A stretch of 64,000 nt of DNA from Solirubrobacteraceae bacterium (GTDB taxonomy: Bacteria; Actinomycetota; Thermoleophilia; Solirubrobacterales; Solirubrobacteraceae), in NCBI GenBank assembly GCA_030447505.1, contig JAUJOT010000003.1:124001-188000 (forward strand), read 5' to 3'. The translations under genes were made by a program, and so were the position numbers. Positions within the stretch are counted from its first letter, which is position 1. Every line of letters begins with the position of its first letter. The notes beneath the pieces are model-generated. The model was not told where the DNA came from. It ran no database searches and saw nothing but the letters and a program-made list of their open reading frames with translations. Of this stretch, positions 10,580 to 18,961 are shown one piece after another.

Positions 10580-11020
10580 CTAGCTCGCGCGGCGTCGGCG
10601 ACCGACGGCGAGTGCCAGTCCGGCGACCATGATTGTCGCCACCGCCAGCGCCACCACCCACGGCCCGTTGCGCGCGCGGCTGGACTCTGGCTCGACGACA
10701 GCGGACGCCGGCGCGGCTGGCGCCGTGCTCCGCAGCGACGCGCGGTAGTACGTCACTCGGTGCAGCGCGGCGATCACGTCCGCGGGCGTGGCCTGGTCGT
10801 CTTGCAGCGTCACGCGCGCCAACCGCGAGTCGCGGTCGGCGTCGACGTCGACGACGCCGTCGACGGTTGCCACGACGCGCTCGACCGTCGCCTCGCAGTT
10901 CCCGCACACCATCCCCTCGACTTCCAAGACGACCGTCCTCGTCACCGCCGACGCGGGCACCGGAACCAACGCCAGCGCGACCAGCGCCAGCAGACAGATG
11001 AGAGCCGGGCGCAGTCTCAT
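10580..11020 (-). CDS. Exported, membrane-anchored HMA-domain protein (MerP-like)
   Basis: 146 residues. A signal peptide (LICLLALVALALVPVPASA) is followed by one HMA domain with CxxC in EGMVCGNCEATVE, a Pro/Ala linker and a C-terminal membrane helix (VVALAVATIMVAGLALAVG) with a basic tail. The metal-binding domain should face the outside of the membrane, like periplasmic MerP. Its start overlaps the end of the HMA-CcdA gene by 4 bp, so the two form an operon. It could bind extracellular Cu or Hg and pass it to the partner membrane protein. Confidence 0.85.
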   Translation of the reverse strand: MRLRPALICLLALVALALVPVPASAVTRTVVLEVEGMVCGNCEATVERVVATVDGVVDVDADRDSRLARVTLQDDQATPADVIAALHRVTYYRASLRSTAPAAPASAVVEPESSRARNGPWVVALAVATIMVAGLALAVGRRRRAS

Positions 11021-12114
11021 CCCAGCAGCGCTGAAAATCCGCCGGCGGCCAGGAACCGCCCGACGAAGTACGCGGCGGCGAGCACCAGCAGCACGCCGAC
11101 CGCGACTTCGGCGCGGCGCACAAGCCGAGTCGCAGTCAGCATCCGCTCAAAGACGCCGGTGAAGGTCCCGAGGACCGCCAGCGGAATGCCACGCCCGAGC
11201 GCGAACGCTCCCATCAGAGCCGCGCCGTAGAAGACGTTTCCCGCGGTCGCCGCGCCGACCGCCACCGGCAGCAGCAGCGGCGTACAGCCCGGGCACGCCA
11301 TCAAACCGAACGGCACACCGACCATGAACGCCCCGCCCGTCGTGCCGCCCGCGCCCACCCGCGGCGCGAACGCCGGCAACCGCGGACGCCACAAGCGCAG
11401 ATTGACCGCCGCCATCGCCAAAAGCACGACTGCCGCCACGAAGTACCAGACCGCGAGCCGTGAGCTGATGAACCCGATCGCCTCCGTGCCGACGAGCGCG
11501 AACGCCGCACCGAGCGCGACATCGACGACCACGACACCGGCGACGAACGCGACCGAGAGACGCAGCGCCCTCGCACGCGTCGTCGCGCCCGCCCCGGTCA
11601 CGCAGCCCATGACCGCCGGCGCCATCGCATAACTCGGGGGAGCGAACGCCACCAACAGCCCCAGCCCGAACGCAACCGGCAACCCGATCAGGGCCGCACC
11701 CCGCATGCTGTCGCTCATAGCCGCCAGCGCGCCCGACGAGAACAACGCGTCCGAACCGACCTGAAACAGCAGCACGCCGAGGAGGAACACCAACACGCCG
11801 GCCAACACCAGACCGACCGGCGACGGCCCTCCTCGCTGCGCCTGCTCGCCGATCCGGTAGCCGAGACGCTCAATCCGGCGCTGCGCCTCGGCGTCATCGA
11901 CCGCCGAGCCGGTGAGGCGAACCTCGCCGGCCTCGACATCGACGTCGACCTCACGCACGCCCGGCACCTCGCCGAGCGCGAGCTGCACCGTCTTCGCGCA
12001 GCCGTCGCACGTCATCCCTTCAACCCGCAGGCAGACCTTCGCGTCGGCGTCGGCAAGCGTTGTCCGCAACGCCGTCGCGCCCGACCTGCGCGCGTCTTCG
12101 CTCGCCGTCTTCAC
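11017..12114 (-). CDS. HMA domain fused to a DsbD/CcdA (SafE-like) membrane protein
   Basis: About 365 residues from the GTG at 12114. An N-terminal HMA domain (EGMTCDGCAKTV) is followed by about eight membrane helices of the DsbD/CcdA or SafE type, with a Pro/Cys motif in LMACPGCTPLLLPV. Such fusions occur near metal-resistance and cytochrome-assembly genes and may move metal or reducing power through the membrane. An in-frame ATG at 12264 exists, but the added 50 residues read poorly and would contain the promoter-like sequence at 12125-12155. The GTG lies just after that promoter's -10 box, which would give a nearly leaderless mRNA. Confidence 0.82.
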   Translation of the reverse strand: MKTASEDARRSGATALRTTLADADAKVCLRVEGMTCDGCAKTVQLALGEVPGVREVDVDVEAGEVRLTGSAVDDAEAQRRIERLGYRIGEQAQRGGPSPVGLVLAGVLVFLLGVLLFQVGSDALFSSGALAAMSDSMRGAALIGLPVAFGLGLLVAFAPPSYAMAPAVMGCVTGAGATTRARALRLSVAFVAGVVVVDVALGAAFALVGTEAIGFISSRLAVWYFVAAVVLLAMAAVNLRLWRPRLPAFAPRVGAGGTTGGAFMVGVPFGLMACPGCTPLLLPVAVGAATAGNVFYGAALMGAFALGRGIPLAVLGTFTGVFERMLTATRLVRRAEVAVGVLLVLAAAYFVGRFLAAGGFSALLG

Positions 12115-12124
12115 GATCGGCCGC

Positions 12125-12155
12125 ACGGTAAGCCATGCCGCGACTGGAAGGTCAA
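12125..12155 (-). promoter_or_regulatory. Third, degenerate MerR-type promoter
   Basis: On the minus strand there is TTGACC at 12155-12150, a 19-bp spacer and TACCGT at 12130-12125. The first 11 bases (TTGACCTTCCA) match the two CueR-type promoters in this window, but the downstream half-site TGGAA is not at the right spacing. It may be a weaker or altered target of the same regulator. Confidence 0.55.
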
Positions 12156-12359
12156 CGACAACCCACGCGCCGCGAGCACCGGGCGGCCCTGGGCAGGTCT
12201 CCGCTCGGAGATGCCGCCGGATGCCGCGCAGACGCTCAAGACGACTCGGCGTCAGTGGCGACAAACACTAAGAGTTGGATTTCGCGCCGGTGATGGCGCT
12301 ACCCGGGCCACTGAGCTTCCGAGATCAACGGCGGACTCCCAAGGGTTGGTGGTTTGGGG

Positions 12360-12379
12360 TATCAGCCTGGGGTGATAAC
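12360..12379 (+). promoter_or_regulatory. Operator and -10 box of the mer operon
   Basis: An inverted repeat TATCA (12360-12364) n8 TGATA (12373-12377) overlaps a -10-like GATAAC (12374-12379). ArsR/SmtB-type repressors bind such imperfect 12-2-12-like dyads over the promoter. The GTG start of the regulator at 12389 is nine bases beyond the -10 box, compatible with a leaderless transcript. No clear -35 box is present. Confidence 0.5.
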
Positions 12380-12388
12380 GTGTGCATT

Positions 12389-12763
12389 GTGTCGCGTCCG
12401 TCGTTGGAGATGCCGTTTGTGCTGCCCGCGCAGCCGGCTGAGGCTGATCTTGTCGCGAAGTACTTCAAGGTGCTGGCGGACGCGACGCGGGTGCGGGTCT
12501 TGGAGCTGCTTGATGAGCATGGCGAGCTGACTGTTGGCGAGCTCGTACGGCGCCTGGAGCAGCCCCAGCCGAAGGTGTCCAATCACCTTGCGTGTCTGCG
12601 CTGGTGCGGCTTCGTCGCGCGTGAGCGCCGGCATCCGAACGTCTTTTATCGCGTCGTCGACGAGCGCGCGCTTGAGCTGTTGGGGCTCGCCCGTGCGGTT
12701 CTCGCCGACAACGCCGAGCATGTCGCTTCGTGCGAGCGCGTCAACGAGGACGGGAGCTGCTGA
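12389..12763 (+). CDS. merR: ArsR/SmtB-family metal-sensing repressor of the mer operon
   Basis: 124 residues from GTG 12389, a winged-helix ArsR-type protein (YFKVLADATRVRVLELL, then QPKVSNHLACLRWCGFV). Cys in HLACLRWCGF occupy the place used by the Cd/Pb sensor CmtR in its recognition helix, and two more Cys lie at the C-terminus (ASCERVNEDGSC). Actinobacterial mer operons are known to use an ArsR-fold repressor instead of classical MerR, which fits here. The stop overlaps the next start (TGATG). The sensed metal is inferred from merA and merB downstream; the symbol follows actinobacterial usage. Confidence 0.82.
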   Translation: MSRPSLEMPFVLPAQPAEADLVAKYFKVLADATRVRVLELLDEHGELTVGELVRRLEQPQPKVSNHLACLRWCGFVARERRHPNVFYRVVDERALELLGLARAVLADNAEHVASCERVNEDGSC

Positions 12764-13017
12764 TGGTCGAGAAGCCGAGGGGGCGCGGAAGCGGACCGGC
12801 GCTGGGCGTTGGTGGGCTGGTGATGGTGGTCTGCTGCGGCGGCCATCTGCTCGTGCTGGCCGGGCTCGGTGGCTTGGCCGTCGGGACGGTCGTCGGGGTA
12901 CTTGGCGGCGTGCTCGCCGCGATGCTGCTGATCGCCGTCGTCGTAGTGATGCGCCGGCGGCGGCCAACGGCTGGGTGCGATGCGCGTCACGGGCGGGTGG
13001 TGGCTGATGAGCGTTGA
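12763..13017 (+). CDS. Small CC-motif membrane protein, MerF-like mercury transporter
   Basis: 84 residues with two membrane helices. The first holds a vicinal Cys pair (MVVCCGGHLLVLAGLGGL), the second ends in a basic RRRR stretch, and a single Cys (AGCDARHG) follows. MerF and MerT carry Hg(II) inward through a CC pair in helix 1 and cytosolic Cys after the last helix, so the layout fits, although the second Cys pair is reduced to one. It lies between the regulator and merA with overlaps of 1 and 11 bp. Confidence 0.62.
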   Translation: MVEKPRGRGSGPALGVGGLVMVVCCGGHLLVLAGLGGLAVGTVVGVLGGVLAAMLLIAVVVVMRRRRPTAGCDARHGRVVADER

Positions 13018-14623
13018 GCTGCAGATCGCGGGCATGACGTGTGCGGCGTGTGCGCAGCATGTCGAGCAGGCGCTGAGGCATGCGGGGGCGCGCGACGTGC
13101 GTGTGGACTGGCAGCTGGGCCGCGCGACCGTCGACCCCTATGGCGTGCCGAACGGCGAGCTTGTTCGCGCGCTCGATGACACCAATTATCGCGTGCAGCG
13201 CATCGTCGAGGCAGCGCGCGATGACGCGATCGACTCGGCCGGCTATGACTACGACCTGGCGATTGTCGGCTCCGGTGGCGCTGCGTTCGCGGCGGCGATC
13301 GCTGCGCGACGCCGCGACCTGCGCGTGTTGATGGTCGAGCGCGGCGTCGTTGGCGGAACGTGTGTGAACGTCGGGTGCATTCCCTCCAAGGCGCTGCTGG
13401 CCGCGGCCGAGTCACGTCGCCGTGCCATCGACGGTCGCTTTGCTGGCATCAGCACCGACGCCGGCCCAGTAGATATGGGCGCGCTCGTTGCGGCCAAGGA
13501 TGACCTGGTCGGCGAGCTGCGCCAGAGCAAGTACCTCGAGCTGGCCGACGAGTACGGCTTTGAGCTGCTTGACGGCAACGCGCGGTTTGTGGCCGGCCCG
13601 GCGCTGGATGTTGACGGCCGGCGCGTCGAGGCGGCGCACTACCTCGTCGCCAGCGGCGCCGAGCCGCACGTGCCCGACATCCCGGGCATACACGCCAGCG
13701 GGTATCTGACGTCGACGACGGCGATGGAGCTCACGTCGCTGCCGGAGTCACTGCTGGTGATCGGCGGCGGCTACGTGGCTATGGAGCAGGCACAGCTGTT
13801 CGCGCATCTCGGCACGCGTGTGACGATGCTCGTGCGCTCCCAACTGGCGCGCGGCGAGGAGCCCGAGGTCGCCGCCGTCGTGCGCGACGCATTTGAGGCC
13901 GAGGGCATCGCGGTGCACGAGGACATCACGCCCGACGAGGTGCGCCGCGACGGCGACGACGTCGTCGTGCTCGCGGCCGGCCAAGAGTTCCGCGCGCGCC
14001 AGCTGCTGCTGGCCACGGGCCGCTCGCCCCGGACCGACGGGCTAGGCCTGCGGGAGGTCGGCGTCGAGCTCGGCGCCCGCGGTGAAGTCACAGTCGACGC
14101 CGAGTTGCGCACGAGCAACCCGCGCGTGTGGGCGGCCGGTGACGTCACCGGCCACCCGCAGTTCGTGTACGTCGCGGCCAAGCACGGCGGTCTCGTCGTC
14201 GAAAACGCGTTTGATCGCGCGGGCCGGCGCATCGACTACGCGGCGCTGCCGCGGATCACCTTCATCAACCCGACGATCGCCGCCGCTGGTCTCAGCGAAG
14301 CCGACGCCCGGCAGCTGGGCATCGAGTGCGAGTGCCGGGTGCTTGAGCTCGAGCATGTCCCGCGCGCGATCGTCAGTCGCAACACGCGCGGCCTGGTCAA
14401 GCTCGTCGCCGAGCGCGAAGGCGGCCGCATCATCGGCGTGCACATCGTCGGCGACGGCGCCGGCGACGTCATCCTCGCCGCCAGCCTCGCGATCCAGACC
14501 GCGATGACCGTCGAGCAGCTCGCCAGCGGCTGGAACCCCTATCTGACGCTCGGCGAAGGTCTCTACCTCGCCGCGCAGTCCTTTCACCGCGATCCCAGCA
14601 AGCTGTCGTGCTGCGCGGCCTGA
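13007..14623 (+). CDS. merA: Mercuric reductase
   Basis: 538 residues. An N-terminal HMA domain (GMTCAACAQHVE, C12/C15) is followed by the FAD site (DLAIVGSGGAAFAAAI), redox pair GTCVNVGCIPSK, the NADPH site (LLVIGGGYVAMEQAQLF), the second FAD motif (VWAAGDVTG) and the C-terminal Cys pair SCCAA. All Cys needed to reduce Hg(II) to Hg(0) in the cytosol are present. The ATG at 13007 was chosen because it keeps the full HMA domain and overlaps the preceding gene by 11 bp. Confidence 0.95.
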   Translation: MSVELQIAGMTCAACAQHVEQALRHAGARDVRVDWQLGRATVDPYGVPNGELVRALDDTNYRVQRIVEAARDDAIDSAGYDYDLAIVGSGGAAFAAAIAARRRDLRVLMVERGVVGGTCVNVGCIPSKALLAAAESRRRAIDGRFAGISTDAGPVDMGALVAAKDDLVGELRQSKYLELADEYGFELLDGNARFVAGPALDVDGRRVEAAHYLVASGAEPHVPDIPGIHASGYLTSTTAMELTSLPESLLVIGGGYVAMEQAQLFAHLGTRVTMLVRSQLARGEEPEVAAVVRDAFEAEGIAVHEDITPDEVRRDGDDVVVLAAGQEFRARQLLLATGRSPRTDGLGLREVGVELGARGEVTVDAELRTSNPRVWAAGDVTGHPQFVYVAAKHGGLVVENAFDRAGRRIDYAALPRITFINPTIAAAGLSEADARQLGIECECRVLELEHVPRAIVSRNTRGLVKLVAEREGGRIIGVHIVGDGAGDVILAASLAIQTAMTVEQLASGWNPYLTLGEGLYLAAQSFHRDPSKLSCCAA

Positions 14624-14636
14624 CAGGAGGCACTGC

Positions 14637-15107
14637 ATGCAGAAGCTGATCGGAAGCGCCCTAGCCGGACTGGGCGCCACGCTGTTCATGGAGCACGCCT
14701 CAACGTGGCTGTACAACCGCCAAGACGAGCAGTCGCGAGAACGTGAAGAGCAGCTGCGCAGCGAGATGCCGACCACCACGCTTGTGCGCAAGACCGCCGC
14801 GCTCGCCGACACCCAACTCGACGACGAGCGCGCGCAGCAGCTCGGGATGCTCGCGCACTACGCCTTCGGTGCCGCCGGCGGACCCGCCGCGCTGGTGCTC
14901 AAGCGCAGCGGGCTCAGCCCGCTGAAGGCCGCACTCGGTGTGGCGACCGCGATGGAACTGGTCGTCGACGAGGCCATGAACACGCTGTTCGGGCTGACGG
15001 CACCGCCCGCTGAGTGGCCGTGGCAGGCGCACGCGCGCGGCATCGCCGCACATGCCGTGTACGGCGTCGCTCTGGGTCTGCTGCTTAGCGCCGGCGAAGA
15101 CGACTGA
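14637..15107 (+). CDS. Membrane-associated protein of a mer operon (DUF1440/YagU-like)
   Basis: 156 residues starting 13 bases after merA with ribosome site GGAGG. It has an N-terminal helix (SALAGLGATLFMEHASTWLY), a charged region, a Gly/Ala-rich helix (HYAFGAAGGPAALVL), and another with conserved acids (MELVVDEAMNTLFGL). The layout resembles the YagU/DUF1440 group of inner-membrane proteins, with low certainty. Its stop overlaps the next gene by one base. Role in mercury handling unknown. Confidence 0.55.
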   Translation: MQKLIGSALAGLGATLFMEHASTWLYNRQDEQSREREEQLRSEMPTTTLVRKTAALADTQLDDERAQQLGMLAHYAFGAAGGPAALVLKRSGLSPLKAALGVATAMELVVDEAMNTLFGLTAPPAEWPWQAHARGIAAHAVYGVALGLLLSAGEDD

Positions 15108-16453
15108 TGGACGAGCGCTATGACGCCGTCGTGCTTGGCAGCGGACCGGCCGGCGAGGTCGCCGTCTCGCGGCTGGCCGACCAGGGCCTGCGCGTCGCGC
15201 TCGTCGAGCGCGAGCTGGTCGGCGGCGAATGCGCCTATTGGGCGTGCATTCCCTCAAAGACGCTGCTGCGCCCACCCGAGACGCGGGCTCAGGCCAGGCG
15301 CGCCGCCGGCGTGCAGGAACCCCAGCAGCGCTGGGCTGAGGTCGCCAAGTACCGCGACTACATGATCCGCGACCTCGACGACGGCGCACAGGTCGACAGC
15401 TATGAGCAGCAGGGCGTCACGGTCATCAAGGCGGCCGGACGCATCTGCGGTGCCGGCCGCGTCGAGGTCGACGGCCGCGTCCTTGAGACCGAGCGGATCG
15501 TGATCGCTACCGGCAGCGACGCGATGATCCCGCCGATCGACGGCCTGGAGGAGGTCGGCTACTGGACTAACCGCGAGGCGACGACCGTTCAGCAGATCCC
15601 CGACAGCGTCCTGATCCTCGGCGGCGGCCCGGTGGGGGTCGAGCTCGCCCAGTTCTTTGCGCGCTTCGGCGCGCACGTGACGATCGTGCAGTCCGCCGAC
15701 CGCCTCGTCGACCGCGAGGACCCGCGCGTCGGTCAACTCATCGCCGACCATCTGCGCGAAGAGGGCATCGACATCCGGCTCGGCGCCACGGCGGTCGCCG
15801 CGCAACGCCGCGACGGCCGGCGCGTGCTCGTGCTCGAGGACGGCGAAGAGCTCGCCGCCCAGGAACTGCTGATCGCCACCGGCCGCCGCCCGCGGATCAA
15901 CGGCATCGGACTGGAGTCGCTGGGCATCCAACCTGACCCGAAGGGCATCGCGATCGACGAACGCTGTCGCGCCGGCGACGGCGTCTGGGCGATCGGCGAC
16001 GTCACCGGCGTCATGGCGTTCACGCACGTCGGCATGTACCAAGGCCGCATCGCCTGCGCCGACATCGCCGGGCACCCCGCCAAAGCCGACTACACCGCGA
16101 TCCCGCGCGTCGTGTTCTCCGACCCCGAGATCGCCGCCGTCGGGCTAACCGAGCAGCAGGCCCGCGACCGCGGGATCGACATCGCCACAAGCCACATCAG
16201 CCTGGCCGCCTCGATCGCGCGCCCGTGGACATATGAGCAAGACCCACGCGGCGACCTCGGCCTGCTCGCCGACCGCACCCAACGGGTGCTCATCGGCGCA
16301 TGGGCAGTGGCGCCCTTGGCGGGCGAGTGGATCCACCAGGCGGCGCTGGCGATCAAGACCCAGACATCGATCGACGTGCTGCGCGACACCGTCGCGCAGT
16401 TTCCCACCTTCAGCGAGGCCTACCTCAAGGGCGTCGAGGCGCTCGAATTGTGA
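15107..16453 (+). CDS. MerA-like FAD/NAD(P)-dependent disulfide oxidoreductase
   Basis: 448 residues without an HMA domain. FAD motif AVVLGSGPAGEVAVSRL, redox pair in GGECAYWACIPSKTLLRP, NAD(P) motif VLILGGGPVGVELAQFF and second FAD motif GVWAIGDVTG are all intact. The C-terminus lacks MerA's terminal Cys pair. It resembles the actinobacterial MerA-like/lipoamide-dehydrogenase-like group. In this operon it could recycle a thiol cofactor such as mycothiol-type disulfides, but this is inference. Confidence 0.88.
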   Translation: MDERYDAVVLGSGPAGEVAVSRLADQGLRVALVERELVGGECAYWACIPSKTLLRPPETRAQARRAAGVQEPQQRWAEVAKYRDYMIRDLDDGAQVDSYEQQGVTVIKAAGRICGAGRVEVDGRVLETERIVIATGSDAMIPPIDGLEEVGYWTNREATTVQQIPDSVLILGGGPVGVELAQFFARFGAHVTIVQSADRLVDREDPRVGQLIADHLREEGIDIRLGATAVAAQRRDGRRVLVLEDGEELAAQELLIATGRRPRINGIGLESLGIQPDPKGIAIDERCRAGDGVWAIGDVTGVMAFTHVGMYQGRIACADIAGHPAKADYTAIPRVVFSDPEIAAVGLTEQQARDRGIDIATSHISLAASIARPWTYEQDPRGDLGLLADRTQRVLIGAWAVAPLAGEWIHQAALAIKTQTSIDVLRDTVAQFPTFSEAYLKGVEALEL

Positions 16454-16526
16454 GCCTCCATCAGCGCCGCCCCCCGCGGCGCATCCCTCACGTAACGCAA
16501 CGCAGCATGCGCCAACCACCCGAGCG

Positions 16527-16781
16527 ATGACGTCCGCCATGCGCAAGCTGATCGTATTGAAGGTCGCCTGCTGCGGGACACCGTTGCTGGTGCTCGGCCT
16601 CATCGCCTCGGGGGCGGTCGCAGCGGTCGACCTCGCTATCGGAAGCGCCGTCCTGGGACTGGCTCTCATCGTCTGGGTGCTTTGGCGCCGCCGCCCAAGC
16701 CGCGTCTGCAAACCACGGAATACTCCGGCGGGAGCTCAGCCGTCGGATTCAAGCGGCGCCCGTGAGGCGGCTGACAGGTGA
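16527..16781 (+). CDS. merF: MerF-like mercury uptake protein
   Basis: 84 residues, or 80 from the ATG at 16539. Two membrane helices are visible. The first has the CC motif followed by TP (KVACCGTPLLVLGLI), closely matching the CC-x-TP arrangement of MerF, and a Cys follows the second helix (RRRPSRVCKP). MerF passes Hg(II) to MerA in the cytosol. It lies between the second flavoprotein and merB. Reduction of the second Cys pair to one Cys differs from the reference proteins. Confidence 0.7.
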   Translation: MTSAMRKLIVLKVACCGTPLLVLGLIASGAVAAVDLAIGSAVLGLALIVWVLWRRRPSRVCKPRNTPAGAQPSDSSGAREAADR

Positions 16782-16869
16782 GCATCCCGACCGCCACCCA
16801 GACGGGTGTTGTGGCTGTCGATGATGGCCGAGGCGAGCGCTCTCTTGCACCGCGACGAAGCCGATCGGC

Positions 16870-17496
16870 ATGACTGAGGCGTGTTCGCACGGCATCAAGG
16901 CCACCGACGTGGTGCTGCGCAGCCTCTTTGGTCAATGCGACGATGCGCCGCTGGCGTCGACGCTGCTCGGACTACTGGCTCAAGGCCAGCCCGTCACGAG
17001 CGCGGCCTTGGCCGGCGCGGTCGCGCGCGCACCCGAAGACGTCGCTCGGCAGCTCGCTGCGTGGCCGAACATCGAGCGCGACGGCGATGATGCGGTCGTC
17101 GGGTTCGCCGGGCTCACGCTGCGCCAAACCGCGCACAGCTTCGACGTCGCCGGCCGCCAGCTGCACACGTGGTGCGCGTGGGACACGCTGTTCTTGCCGG
17201 CGCTGCTGGACACAACCGCGCGCGTGCGCTCGACGTGCCCGGTAACCGGTGTCGGTGTCGAGCTCGTGGTCGCCCCCGGCGGCGTCCAGCACGCCCAACC
17301 GGCTGGCCTGCACGTCTCATTTCCGCCGCCCGCAACAACCGACGCCGCCGACGTCACCGGCTCGTTTTGCTGCCACGTCCACTTCCTGGCCGGCGCCGCG
17401 GCGGCACGCAGCTGGCAGAACGCCCACCCCGAAGGCGAAGTTCTCGACCTGGCCGCCGCGTGTGCCCGCGGCTGTCACGTTCGCGCGAACCCGTGA
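16870..17496 (+). CDS. merB: Alkylmercury (organomercurial) lyase
   Basis: 208 residues. The catalytic triad of MerB is visible: Cys and Asp in HTWCAWDTLFLP (C and D three apart, as C96/D99 in the reference enzyme) and the second Cys in GSFCCHVHFLAG (reference C159). An extra Cys follows that residue. MerB cleaves the C-Hg bond and passes Hg(II) to MerA. The gene is the last of the mer cluster, 88 bp after merF. Together with merA it predicts broad-spectrum mercury resistance. Confidence 0.93.
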   Translation: MTEACSHGIKATDVVLRSLFGQCDDAPLASTLLGLLAQGQPVTSAALAGAVARAPEDVARQLAAWPNIERDGDDAVVGFAGLTLRQTAHSFDVAGRQLHTWCAWDTLFLPALLDTTARVRSTCPVTGVGVELVVAPGGVQHAQPAGLHVSFPPPATTDAADVTGSFCCHVHFLAGAAAARSWQNAHPEGEVLDLAAACARGCHVRANP

Positions 17497-17949
17497 CGGG
17501 CGACGCCACCGCCGAGCTTCGTGCACCCGCATGCGGCACAGCCAACCAGACTTGGTCCACTTGTGTGGCTGCGCTCGCCAGATGCGACCAGCTGGGCTTG
17601 CCTCCAGCGCGTGGGCTAGCGCTTTCGCCTGGATGCGGCGGCGCGTCGAGGCCGGGCGAATAGCCGAGCCGTCTCCGCGGGACAGTGATCTCAGAAACGT
17701 CTGTTTCTGGGGCGAGCCAAGGACGCTCTGCCGAGCCTCGCGAACGGCGTAAGCGTCCTCACGCCGGCAGTCGCAGCCGGGTTCTGCGACGTCGGACCGA
17801 GTCGTCGTGACGCGGCATTGCGACGGGCCAGATAGCGCTGACAGAAGCGGCCATCTACCGCTGAAGATCACAGGCGTTGCTCGACGCTGTCGAGTTCCCG
17901 CTTGCGTTCTGCGTGTTGCGCAGGCACCGACGTCAGAAGGCAGCGAAGC
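17497..17949. other. Intergenic region after merB, no gene seen
   Basis: No frame here resembles a protein family. The only structure noticed is the hairpin at 17692-17709. The region marks the transition from the metal-resistance block to decayed accessory DNA. Confidence 0.5.
17692..17709. repeat. Perfect 7-bp inverted repeat (hairpin)
   Basis: CAGAAAC (17692-17698), loop GTCT, GTTTCTG (17703-17709). It is AT-richer than its surroundings and has no following T run, so it is not a typical rho-independent terminator. It may be an operator half-site pair or the relic of a mobile element end. Confidence 0.4.
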
Positions 17950-18190
17950 ATGAGCAGCAGCGCGCAGTACGACCTCGTGATCGTCGGCGCGGGCATCGCG
18001 GGCTGCGCCGCGGCGGCGCTGTACGGCCGGCGCGGCGCGCGGTGGCGCTGGTCGAGCGTCACGCAGATCCCGGGACGTACAAGACAGGCCGCCACCTCGT
18101 GGGAGCGCCCCGCCGGCTCGCCATCAGCGACCTCCCCCGCAGGGCGGTGCCGACGAGCACGCGCGTCGGCGTCACGAGCTCGAAGCACCT
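17950..18190 (+). pseudogene. Remnant of an FAD-dependent oxidoreductase/monooxygenase
   Basis: From ATG 17950 the frame reads a dinucleotide-binding fold (QYDLVIVGAGIAGCAAAALY). Near 18035 the expected continuation VALVERHADPGTYKT is found only in another frame, so a base has been lost or gained. After that homology stops. It looks like the first 50-60 residues of a geranylgeranyl-reductase- or monooxygenase-like flavoprotein, now dead. No active-site region beyond the FAD fold remains. Confidence 0.7.
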
Positions 18191-18547
18191 GATGGAAGCC
18201 CGATCCGGTACTCCCGGGGCTCGGTCTCGTGGTGTGCCGAGCCTGGAGCTCGAACAGCGCCCGCGAGCAGGCAGCCGATAGTGCCGATCGCGCCGTCTGC
18301 CGCACAGCAGACACGATCGCGCTTCGCAGCGGGACGCAGTCGTCGATCAGTGGTGTGGCCGGGCTTGCCTCGGCGCAGGGATCAACCGGCAGCTGATTCG
18401 CGTACGGCTTCGTGAGCGAGCGTCGAGAGCACTCGCGCCAGCGCCGTGCTCGAGCCTTGACCTCGCGCTTGCAGCACGCCAGCTCTATGCGACGGGGCCG
18501 ACCCGGAGTATGATCGTGCGGAATGTTACGAATCAGGAGGTGAAGTC
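18191..18547. other. Intergenic region upstream of the CBS gene
   Basis: No convincing gene. A -10-like TATGAT lies at 18509-18514, about 35 bases before the CBS-protein start, with no clear -35 box. A strong ribosome site AGGAGGTGA stands just before the GTG. Confidence 0.4.
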
Positions 18548-18961
18548 GTGCGCGTGCGAGACGGCATGAACCGCAAGGTTGTGACGGTCGGACCACAGCA
18601 CACGTTGCGGGAGGCGGCGCGACGGATGACGCGCGCCGACGTCGGCGCCGCTGTCGTGCTTGATCCCGACGGCAGCGGGCCCGGCATCTTCACCGAGCGT
18701 GATCTTCTGCAAGCCTGCGGCGCCGGCGACGACCTCGACGTCGAGTTGGTCGAAAATCACCTCACGCAGCGCCTCAAGTACGCCGCCGCGGACTGGTCGC
18801 TGGAGCGCGCTGCCGAGGAGATGGTGCGCGCACGGTTCCGCCACGTGGTCGTGCTCGACGGGTCAGAGGTCGTCGGGATCCTGTCGATGCGCGACATCGT
18901 GCGCTGCTGGACGCAGTCCGGCGCGACGGCGATCCTCGACGCGACATCAGCTCCAGCCTAG
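18548..18961 (+). CDS. Two-CBS-domain protein
   Basis: 137 residues from a GTG preceded by AGGAGGTGA. Two CBS motifs in tandem: MNRKVVTVGPQHTLREAARRM with IFTERDLL, then DWSLERAAEEMVRARFRHVVVLD with GILSMRDIV. CBS pairs bind adenosyl nucleotides and usually regulate a partner; here the pair stands alone. No partner gene is adjacent, and both neighbours are remnants, so it may be a leftover of a larger lost locus or act in trans. Confidence 0.88.
   Translation: MRVRDGMNRKVVTVGPQHTLREAARRMTRADVGAAVVLDPDGSGPGIFTERDLLQACGAGDDLDVELVENHLTQRLKYAAADWSLERAAEEMVRARFRHVVVLDGSEVVGILSMRDIVRCWTQSGATAILDATSAPA

What the first reader, a model, noticed from the sequence alone, without database searches (positions are those of the whole stretch)
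12360..17496. mer operon with two MerF-like proteins and a second MerA-like reductase
Seen: regulator, MerF-like, merA, small membrane protein, second flavoprotein without HMA domain, MerF-like, merB in one direction with overlapping starts. Both small transporters keep the CC pair in helix 1 but only one Cys after helix 2. The second reductase may recycle a low-molecular-weight thiol.
Basis: partly seen in the sequence, partly recalled or inferred. Interest (0 to 1): 0.5.

Follow-up and report, generated by a model that had tools for sequence, protein, structure and literature searches.

The report
Mercury operon with an extra reductase
A soil actinobacterium carries a complete mercury-detoxifying operon plus a second, unusual electron-carrying enzyme; relatives of that enzyme sit in mercury gene clusters of many actinobacteria, in some genomes with no classical mercury reductase present, so what it does is worth testing.

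Summary
MerA and MerB look canonical; the small proteins resemble MerF in layout only. flav2 is neither MerA nor a glutathione/mycothione/lipoamide reductase by sequence: it keeps the CxxxxC pair but lacks MerA's C-terminal Cys pair and Tyr264, and the catalytic His of disulfide reductases is Phe/Tyr in 95 of 95 representatives. It is widespread: 40 of 95 representatives lie near MerA, 34 on the same strand within 1.5 kb. Seven others sit without MerA beside a like regulator and a 'DF family' thioredoxin-like gene; one of these has MerB in a genome with no MerA over cut-off. Mycothiol recycling is unlikely: the mycothiol ligase is under cut-off in 26 of 27 flav2 genomes tested, this one included. 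Best reading: an accessory NAD(P)H flavoprotein of mercury loci that delivers electrons to carrier-bound Hg(II). The linkage is well supported; the chemistry is inferred, and the missing tyrosine hydroxyl counts against it. New variant of a known kind.

The parts
12380..12763 (+). ArsR/SmtB regulator, CmtR-like layout (HLACLRWCGF and a C-terminal Cys; CmtR ligand positions recalled); GTG start, or ATG at 12410
   Evidence: NF033788 81.9 bits (cut-off 55); CmtR equivalog only 53 of 150 bits; relatives at 53-67% identity beside flav2 or DF genes in other genomes
12763..13017 (+). small membrane protein 1, Cys-Cys in helix 1, one Cys after helix 2
   Evidence: sequence and hydropathy; no MerF profile hit; one BLAST cluster of 34 such ORFs in 30 loci, two of them the window's own (L001, L004)
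13007..14623 (+). merA, mercuric reductase with N-terminal HMA (GMTCAAC) and C-terminal Cys-Cys
   Evidence: TIGR02053 556.3 bits, cut-off 454.45; PF00403
14637..15107 (+). 4-helix membrane protein (DUF1440/DUF2938-like), no Cys; E19, H74, D111, E112, H132, H139 invariant in an 11-row alignment
   Evidence: weak PF11158 hit 19.3 bits (cut-off 31.4); alignment; model pLDDT 93.8; relative within 5 kb of flav2 in 9 of 40 MerA-linked and 1 of 55 other representatives
15107..16453 (+). flav2: NAD(P)H/FAD-type oxidoreductase, GGECAYWACIPSK redox motif, no HMA, no C-terminal Cys pair, Phe432 at the MerA-Tyr605 / GR-His467 position
16527..16781 (+). small membrane protein 2, Cys-Cys in helix 1, one Cys after helix 2
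   Evidence: sequence and hydropathy
16870..17496 (+). merB, alkylmercury lyase with CAWD and FCCH motifs
   Evidence: PF03243 109.7 bits; motifs
11017..12264 (-). divergent HMA-CcdA (DsbD_TM) fusion, probably part of the locus
   Evidence: PF00403 and PF02683 over cut-off
10580..11020 (-). secreted or anchored HMA protein, MerP-like
   Evidence: PF00403 48.3 bits; TIGR02052 MerP 53.9 of 92.55 bits

Best explanation
A broad-spectrum mercury operon. Steps by analogy with known mer systems: the regulator derepresses on metal, the Cys-Cys membrane proteins pass Hg(II) inward, MerB splits organomercurials, MerA reduces Hg(II) to Hg(0). Shown here: flav2 is a recurrent companion of actinobacterial mer genes, distinct from MerA, and in some genomes is found in mer-like operons with no MerA. 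Inferred: flav2 is an accessory NAD(P)H:flavin reductase whose CxxxxC pair takes electrons from FAD and passes them to Hg(II) presented by a partner thiol protein (the DF-family thioredoxin-like and YHS proteins in MerA-less operons; the HMA domain of MerA, or MerB, here) instead of by its own NmerA domain and C-terminal Cys pair, which it lacks.
For: Linkage: 46 of 80 loci have MerA (>=45% identity) within the held flanks; after dereplication 40 of 95, with 37 of 40 on the same strand and 34 of 40 on the same strand within 1.5 kb. Phylum draw of 396 genomes: flav2 in 24, MerA over cut-off in 33, both in 8 (Fisher P 2.8e-4, genomes treated as independent), lying 0.35-1.1 kb apart on one strand in 8 of 8. 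The linkage label needs at least 15 changes on the flav2 tree (quick tree; gains and losses cannot be told apart). MerA-less operons: regulator, DF and flav2 without MerA in 7 of 95 representatives; five of these seven genomes were searched whole and none has MerA over cut-off (G157, G333, G557, G608, G622). G157 has regulator, Cys-Cys protein, MerB (CAWD, FCHH), DF and flav2, and its only TIGR02053 match at E<=1e-100 is flav2 itself. Precedents: GbsMerA lacks NmerA, C-terminal Cys-Cys and Tyr100 yet reduces Hg(II) (PMC10587081 passages); a Synechocystis MerA-like enzyme is reported to depend on glutaredoxin (PMC8261052 section 11 part 1).
Against: F432 has no hydroxyl, and GbsMerA Y437F lost all activity; the Phe of M. 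sedula MerA is paired with Glu317, where flav2 has an invariant Thr306. Most MerA-linked flav2 genes therefore stand beside an enzyme that already does the job. 46 of 95 representatives show no MerA, MerB or near DF match in the held flanks (some flanks are short), so the family is not mercury-only. Of the five MerA-less genomes searched whole, three (G333, G608, G622) have no MerB either and in G557 MerB is on another contig with an in-frame TGA, so there the metal is not proven to be mercury. DF is common (84 of 299 class genomes over cut-off) and lies within about 2 kb of flav2 in only six of those 84 (G157, G333, G409, G557, G608, G622). Only 3 of 30 MerB-only genomes of the phylum draw hold flav2 and only 1 in the MerB operon. 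In G493 flav2 and MerA are unlinked. Six of the 8 co-occurring genomes belong to one family (f19).
Confidence: 0.4

Rival explanations
1. flav2 keeps protein thiols reduced: it reduces the thioredoxin-like or HMA carriers of the locus (DF, TlpA/CcdA relay, HMA-CcdA), so that they can go on trading Hg(II), and does not reduce Hg itself.
For: MerA-linked representatives often hold CcdA (15 of 40) and TlpA (13 of 40) matches within 5 kb; the five plasmid clusters read (of 13 hits) all have CcdA and a TlpA/thioredoxin gene, one also VKOR; in Rhodococcus ruber the regulator, Cys-Cys protein, TlpA, CcdA and flav2 genes run together with merA divergent; this window has a divergent HMA-CcdA gene; DF genes lie beside flav2 in MerA-less loci.
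Against: The His of the His-Glu acid-base pair used by disulfide reductases is Phe/Tyr in 95 of 95. The DF proteins read here have GCPxx rather than CxxC. In the 55 representatives without MerA, CcdA and TlpA matches are 0 each, with one HMA-CcdA-like match.
Confidence: 0.26
2. flav2 is a general flavoprotein (quinone, peroxide or other metal reductase) that limits the redox stress caused by mercury and is captured by mer operons as a helper, perhaps feeding the neighbouring 4-helix membrane protein.
For: 46 of 95 representatives lack MerA, MerB or near DF matches in the held flanks; loss of the catalytic His suits non-disulfide acceptors (inference); the DUF1440/DUF2938-like gene is near flav2 in 9 of 40 MerA-linked representatives and has invariant His/Glu/Asp; the window's copy has no Cys.
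Against: Does not explain the MerA-less operons with the DF protein or, once, MerB. The score against the NAD(P)H-quinone dehydrogenase model is 204 of 479 bits.
Confidence: 0.22
3. One reading: flav2 recycles a low-molecular-weight disulfide such as mycothione.
For: It belongs to the same superfamily; glutathione reductase genes do occur in other mer operons under the name MerK (PMC11227200 passage).
Against: No His for disulfide chemistry in 95 of 95; 192 of 635.65 bits against mycothione reductase and 238 of 480 against glutathione reductase; MshC over cut-off in only 1 of 27 flav2-bearing genomes.
Confidence: 0.06

Closest known systems
MerA mercuric reductase (TIGR02053; Tn501, Bacillus RC607)
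   Same: FAD/NAD(P)H two-domain fold (VIA Z 44.5-46.4 for MerA entries, tied with lipoamide dehydrogenase), CxxxxC pair, mer-operon context
   Different: flav2 lacks NmerA, the C-terminal Cys-Cys and Tyr264, has Phe (90) or Tyr (5 of 95) at 605, 343.5 bits against a 454 cut-off, and forms its own group in the tree
GbsMerA of Gelidibacter salicanalis (8k40; PMC10587081)
   Same: no NmerA, no C-terminal Cys-Cys, no Tyr100; encoded in a mer operon (passages); fold Z 46.4
   Different: GbsMerA needs Tyr437; flav2 has Phe there in 90 of 95; 24% identity
MerK (glutathione reductase genes in other mer operons; PMC11227200 passage)
   Same: a second pyridine nucleotide-disulfide oxidoreductase in a mer operon
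   Different: flav2 misses the glutathione reductase cut-off (238 of 480 bits) and the catalytic His
Synechocystis Slr1849 MerA-like enzyme
   Same: MerA-like flavoprotein acting on Hg(II) and linked to a thioredoxin-fold partner (glutaredoxin 1), as told in papers citing it
   Different: not in a mer operon (start of the abstract of PMC6741143); its sequence was not compared here
MerF mercuric transporter
   Same: hydrophobic hairpin with Cys-Cys in the first helix (MerF layout recalled)
   Different: one Cys instead of Cys-Cys after helix 2, and no profile hit

Membership tests
MerA (for flav2) | redox Cys pair (C207/C212, RC607 numbering) | tested here: met
   C42 and C47 in 95 of 95 representatives; criteria from PMC3466566 and PMC8261052 passages. 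The locus scan used a peptide of this motif, so it is partly selected for
MerA (for flav2) | Tyr264 (Tn501 Tyr100) | tested here: not met
   Gln95 in the window; Q 76, K 8, A 5, E 3, V 1, T 1 of 95 (one row not listed); Tyr in 52 of 52 MerA (alignment)
MerA (for flav2) | Tyr605 (Phe in archaea) | tested here: not met
   Phe432 in the window; Phe 90 and Tyr 5 of 95. Phe also occurs in archaeal and in 46 bacterial MerA (PMC8261052 passage), so this alone is not decisive
MerA (for flav2) | C-terminal vicinal Cys 628/629 | tested here: not met
   1 of 95 has any Cys in its last 25 residues; MerA Cys-Cys in 52 of 52
MerA (for flav2) | TIGR02053 cut-off 454.45 bits | tested here: not met
   343.5 bits
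glutathione / mycothione / lipoamide reductase (for flav2) | His-Glu acid-base pair near the C-terminus | tested here: not met
   His 0 of 95, Glu 89 of 95
glutathione / mycothione / lipoamide reductase (for flav2) | curated NCBIfam cut-offs | tested here: not met
   238 of 480 (GR), 192 of 635.65 (Mtr), 327 of 408.8 (LPD) bits
MerA (for 13007-14623) | TIGR02053 cut-off, Cys-Cys tail, both Tyr | tested here: met
   556.3 bits; the window MerA is one of the 52 rows, all of which have both Tyr and the Cys-Cys tail
MerB (for 16870-17496) | PF03243 cut-off; Cys96, Asp99, Cys159 (Cys117) | tested here: met
   109.7 bits; CAWD and FCCH motifs; the Cys of STCPVTG was taken by eye for Cys117. NCBIfam MerB models just missed: 190.9 of 193 and 181.5 of 200
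MerF (for the two small proteins) | Cys-Cys in helix 1 | tested here: met
   Cys 24/25 and 15/16
MerF (for the two small proteins) | Cys-Cys after helix 2 | tested here: not met
   single Cys 72 and 61; of 29 distinct small Cys-Cys proteins, the window's two included, 19 have Cys-Cys there, 7 single or other Cys, 3 none
MerF (for the two small proteins) | homology to MerF | tested here: inconclusive
   no MerF hit at E<=0.1 for either; weak MerE in 2, MerC in 2, MerT in 1 of 16 members (first 25 of 45 families shown); no MerF among the PDB matches of the 16-member profile
Hg(II) transporter (for the two small proteins) | moves Hg(II) across the membrane | not testable with these tools
   needs an uptake assay
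CmtR (for the regulator) | NF047906 cut-off 150 bits | tested here: not met
   53 bits

The most novel reading that the evidence does not exclude
flav2 is the reductase of a MerA-independent mercury system: with a CmtR-like regulator, a Cys-Cys membrane protein and a DF-family thioredoxin-like carrier (plus MerB or a YHS protein) it reduces Hg(II) in genomes that have no MerA, and it has been combined with MerA operons many times across the actinobacteria. It would give a first candidate answer, for a minority of cases, to how genomes with MerB but no MerA deal with the Hg(II) they release, and a first role for the DF family.
Probability: 0.25. Interest if true: 0.72.

Novelty: new variant of a known kind. 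Interest (0 to 1): 0.5.

Why it matters
A 2021 survey counted 906 of 1795 merB-carrying genomes without MerA and proposed that cells must have other ways of handling the released Hg(II) (PMC8261052 section 11 part 1). A flavoprotein that recurs beside MerA, and in one genome beside MerB with no MerA, is a concrete testable candidate for a few of these. It also warns annotators that a MerA-like hit in an actinobacterium may be this different enzyme, and gives the unassigned DF (seleno)protein family (listed as 'Hypothetical protein DF' in PMC13188914, passage) a possible mercury context.

Tried and rejected
Rejected: flav2 as a second MerA (residues and cut-off fail); as mycothione or glutathione reductase; the small proteins as proven MerF. 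A fold match for the 4-helix protein led nowhere: best Z 4.4, within the range the tool calls uninformative. Fold comparison could not choose between MerA and lipoamide dehydrogenase for flav2 (Z tied at 46.4). flav2 as the general answer for MerB-only genomes: only 3 of 30 in the phylum draw. DF as a mercury-only or flav2-only family: 84 of 299 class genomes have it over cut-off, six of them within about 2 kb of flav2. GC content does not set the operon apart from its neighbours. 'DF family selenoprotein mercury' in the literature gave nothing useful; the best lead was the selenoproteome review.

Rows dropped before counts: one search used 119 flav2 rows of at least 400 residues and reduced them to 95 at 90% identity; L153 (partial flav2 with regulator and DF nearby) fell out there. 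L138, L139, L142 and L145 appear to be the same loci as L010, L011, L013 and L019 (equal contig lengths and neighbours) and were merged by that step. Many contigs are short, so 'no mer gene' can mean 'not seen'; with at least 5 kb on both sides 29 of 59 are MerA-linked. The genomes of L015 and L028 were not searched whole for MerA. One search looked at 20 DF loci picked from the higher-scoring rows that had not been fetched before. Of 13 plasmid hits five were read.


Full report
Anatomy. The window lies at G000:C10:124001-188000 of a 3.84-Mb, 13-contig genome, 97.65% complete. Its nearest flav2 relatives are in MAGs titled 'Actinomycetota', Solirubrobacteraceae and Thermoleophilaceae, so the host is probably a member of the Thermoleophilia; this is an inference. 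The operon reads regulator, Cys-Cys protein 1, merA, 4-helix protein, flav2, Cys-Cys protein 2, merB, all on +. merA passes TIGR02053 (556 bits, cut-off 454) and has an HMA domain; merB passes PF03243 (109.7 bits, cut-off 27) and has the CAWD and FCCH motifs, though it just misses the two NCBIfam MerB cut-offs. Divergent genes on - encode an HMA-CcdA fusion and a MerP-like HMA protein.

What flav2 is not. flav2 scores 343.5 bits against MerA (cut-off 454), 327 against lipoamide dehydrogenase (408.8), 238 against glutathione reductase (480), 192 against mycothione reductase (635.65) and 204 against the NAD(P)H-quinone dehydrogenase model (479). Compared with 52 distinct MerA rows from the same set of loci, 95 flav2 representatives keep the redox Cys pair (95 of 95) but have Gln (76 of 95) where every MerA row has Tyr264, Phe (90) or Tyr (5) where MerA has Tyr605 and disulfide reductases have His, and no C-terminal Cys-Cys. 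In a quick tree of 105 rows the 95 flav2 rows form one group (SH-aLRT 99) and the 8 MerA rows another (100); three long branches are flagged there. By the published MerA criteria (passages) flav2 is not MerA. The predicted fold (mean pLDDT 94.9) matches M. sedula MerA, GbsMerA and a lipoamide dehydrogenase equally (Z 46.4 each).

Where it lives. The genome scan kept 80 loci (of 126 relatives found); 46 of 80 hold a MerA of at least 45% identity within the held flank. Pooling these with genome-draw and plasmid loci and reducing to 95 representatives, 40 of 95 are MerA-linked; 37 of 40 on the same strand and 34 of 40 on the same strand within 1.5 kb. Arrangements vary: merA-flav2, merA-merB-flav2, merA-DUF-flav2, flav2-merA. 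Of 13 plasmid hits five were read: Mycolicibacterium, two Rhodococcus, Streptomyces and Pseudarthrobacter records show merA and flav2 in the same cluster, merB in four of the five, CcdA and a TlpA/thioredoxin gene in all five; flav2 is annotated only as NAD(P)/FAD-dependent oxidoreductase. CcdA and TrxA proteins of actinobacterial mercury loci are already listed in a 2025 review (PMC12195606 table passage), so that part is known. In an even draw of 396 genomes of the phylum, flav2 (E<=1e-110) is in 24, MerA over cut-off in 33 and both in 8, and in 8 of 8 they lie 0.35-1.1 kb apart on one strand (Fisher P 2.8e-4 with genomes treated as independent; six of the eight are from one family). Among 28 chosen genomes, 9 have MerA over cut-off: close to flav2 in 8, unlinked in G493. 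MerA linkage is scattered over the flav2 tree and needs at least 15 changes, gains and losses not being told apart.

MerA-less operons. Seven of 95 representatives (L015, L028, L090, L092, L142, L143, L144) have flav2 with a DF-family thioredoxin-like gene within 2 kb and no MerA in the held stretch. NF049942 is well over its cut-off of 70 bits for L013 (114.5) and L090 (119.9). In five of them the DF match ends 0-18 bases before the flav2 match (L015, L028, L090, L092, L144); in L142 and L143 regulator and DF are divergent from flav2. A regulator 53-60% identical to the window's is present in all seven, a YHS-like gene in four (L015, L028, L092, L142; PF04945 over cut-off for L013, the same locus as L142, and for L028), a Cys-Cys membrane protein in five of the seven (L028, L090, L092, L142, L143). 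Five of the seven genomes were searched whole and none has MerA over cut-off: G157, G333, G557, G608, G622; L015 and L028 were not checked in this way. L090 (G157, 97% complete, 5 contigs) also holds MerB with CAWD and FCHH motifs between regulator and DF, and the genome's only TIGR02053 match at E<=1e-100 is flav2 itself. Against a mercury reading of the others: G333, G608 and G622 have no MerB match, and in G557 it is on another contig with an in-frame TGA. DF and regulator also pair without flav2: of 20 further DF loci examined, a regulator of at least 59% identity is adjacent in 8 and a MerB or MerB-like gene in 3 (L164 at 71% identity to the window MerB, L165, and L166, only MerB-like at 56 of 193 bits). 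DF is common: 84 of 299 class genomes over cut-off, within about 2 kb of flav2 in six of them.

Thiol recycling. MshC is not over cut-off in the window's genome (best 246.6 of 485.1 bits; 13 of 14 control genomes also ring at that loose level) and is over cut-off in only 1 of 27 flav2-bearing genomes, the window's included (completeness 71-100%). With the catalytic His gone, a mycothione reductase role is unlikely. Other small thiols were not tested.

Mechanism. Established for relatives: MerA reduces Hg(II) with NADPH through FAD and the CxxxxC pair (passages). Shown here: the association of flav2 with mer genes and its active-site make-up. Inferred: electrons go to Hg(II) presented by a partner. 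For: GbsMerA lacks NmerA, C-terminal Cys-Cys and Tyr100 and still reduces Hg(II) (passages), and a Synechocystis MerA-like enzyme is tied to glutaredoxin (section text; a reference title; passages). Against: GbsMerA Y437F is dead and flav2 has Phe; M. sedula MerA pairs its Phe with Glu317 where flav2 has Thr306. I therefore hold the mechanism at 0.4 while the mercury linkage of the MerA-linked members is firm.

The small proteins. Both keep Cys-Cys in helix 1 and one Cys after helix 2. Of 29 distinct small Cys-Cys proteins in the loci scanned, the window's two included, 19 have a Cys-Cys tail, 7 a single or other Cys, 3 none. The seven are the window's two, its near relatives L010, L011 and L013, and also L059 and L063, so the form is not unique to this window. 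More than one such gene per locus also occurs elsewhere (L056, L066, L082).

Literature. Ten full-text searches of the held open library were made. None of the listed titles and abstract openings, nor the passages and one section part that I read, describes this flavoprotein in actinobacterial mer operons or a MerA-less DF-flav2 operon; most subscription papers are not held, so it may be in print elsewhere. MerK, a glutathione reductase in mer operons, is the nearest named idea (PMC11227200 passage).

Verdict. Observation confirmed; interpretation partly supported; a new variant of a known kind with one bold and testable reading.

Noticed in passing
L090, L092, L015, L028, L142, L143, L144: MerA-less operons: CmtR-like regulator, usually a Cys-Cys protein, YHS or (once) MerB, DF-family protein, flav2.
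   Followed up: yes
L164, L165, L166: DF-family gene directly beside or within about 0.5 kb of a merB or merB-like gene, without flav2 in the fetched stretch.
   Followed up: partly
genome rows: 19 of 60 MerB-family matches in actinobacteria contain one or two in-frame TGA codons, perhaps selenocysteine forms of MerB-like proteins.
   Followed up: no
window 17902-18192 (+): Looks like the N-terminal piece of an FAD-dependent oxidoreductase that runs out of frame; possible decayed gene downstream of merB (judged by eye).
   Followed up: no
window 18548-18961 (+): Two-CBS-domain protein downstream of the operon (PF00571).
   Followed up: no
L105 8404-13176: On a Rhodococcus plasmid a GH15 gene, glucose-6-phosphate dehydrogenase and another FAD oxidoreductase follow flav2 in the mer cluster, which could supply NADPH.
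   Followed up: no
L002, L003, L005 (own genome): Three further full-length flav2 paralogues besides MerA: L002 (44%) and L003 (41%) carry Phe/Tyr at the catalytic His position, L005 (35%) keeps His and looks like a lipoamide dehydrogenase.
   Followed up: partly
L102 2870-3169: A DF-family gene lies about 4.2 kb from the L002 paralogue in the window's own genome.
   Followed up: no
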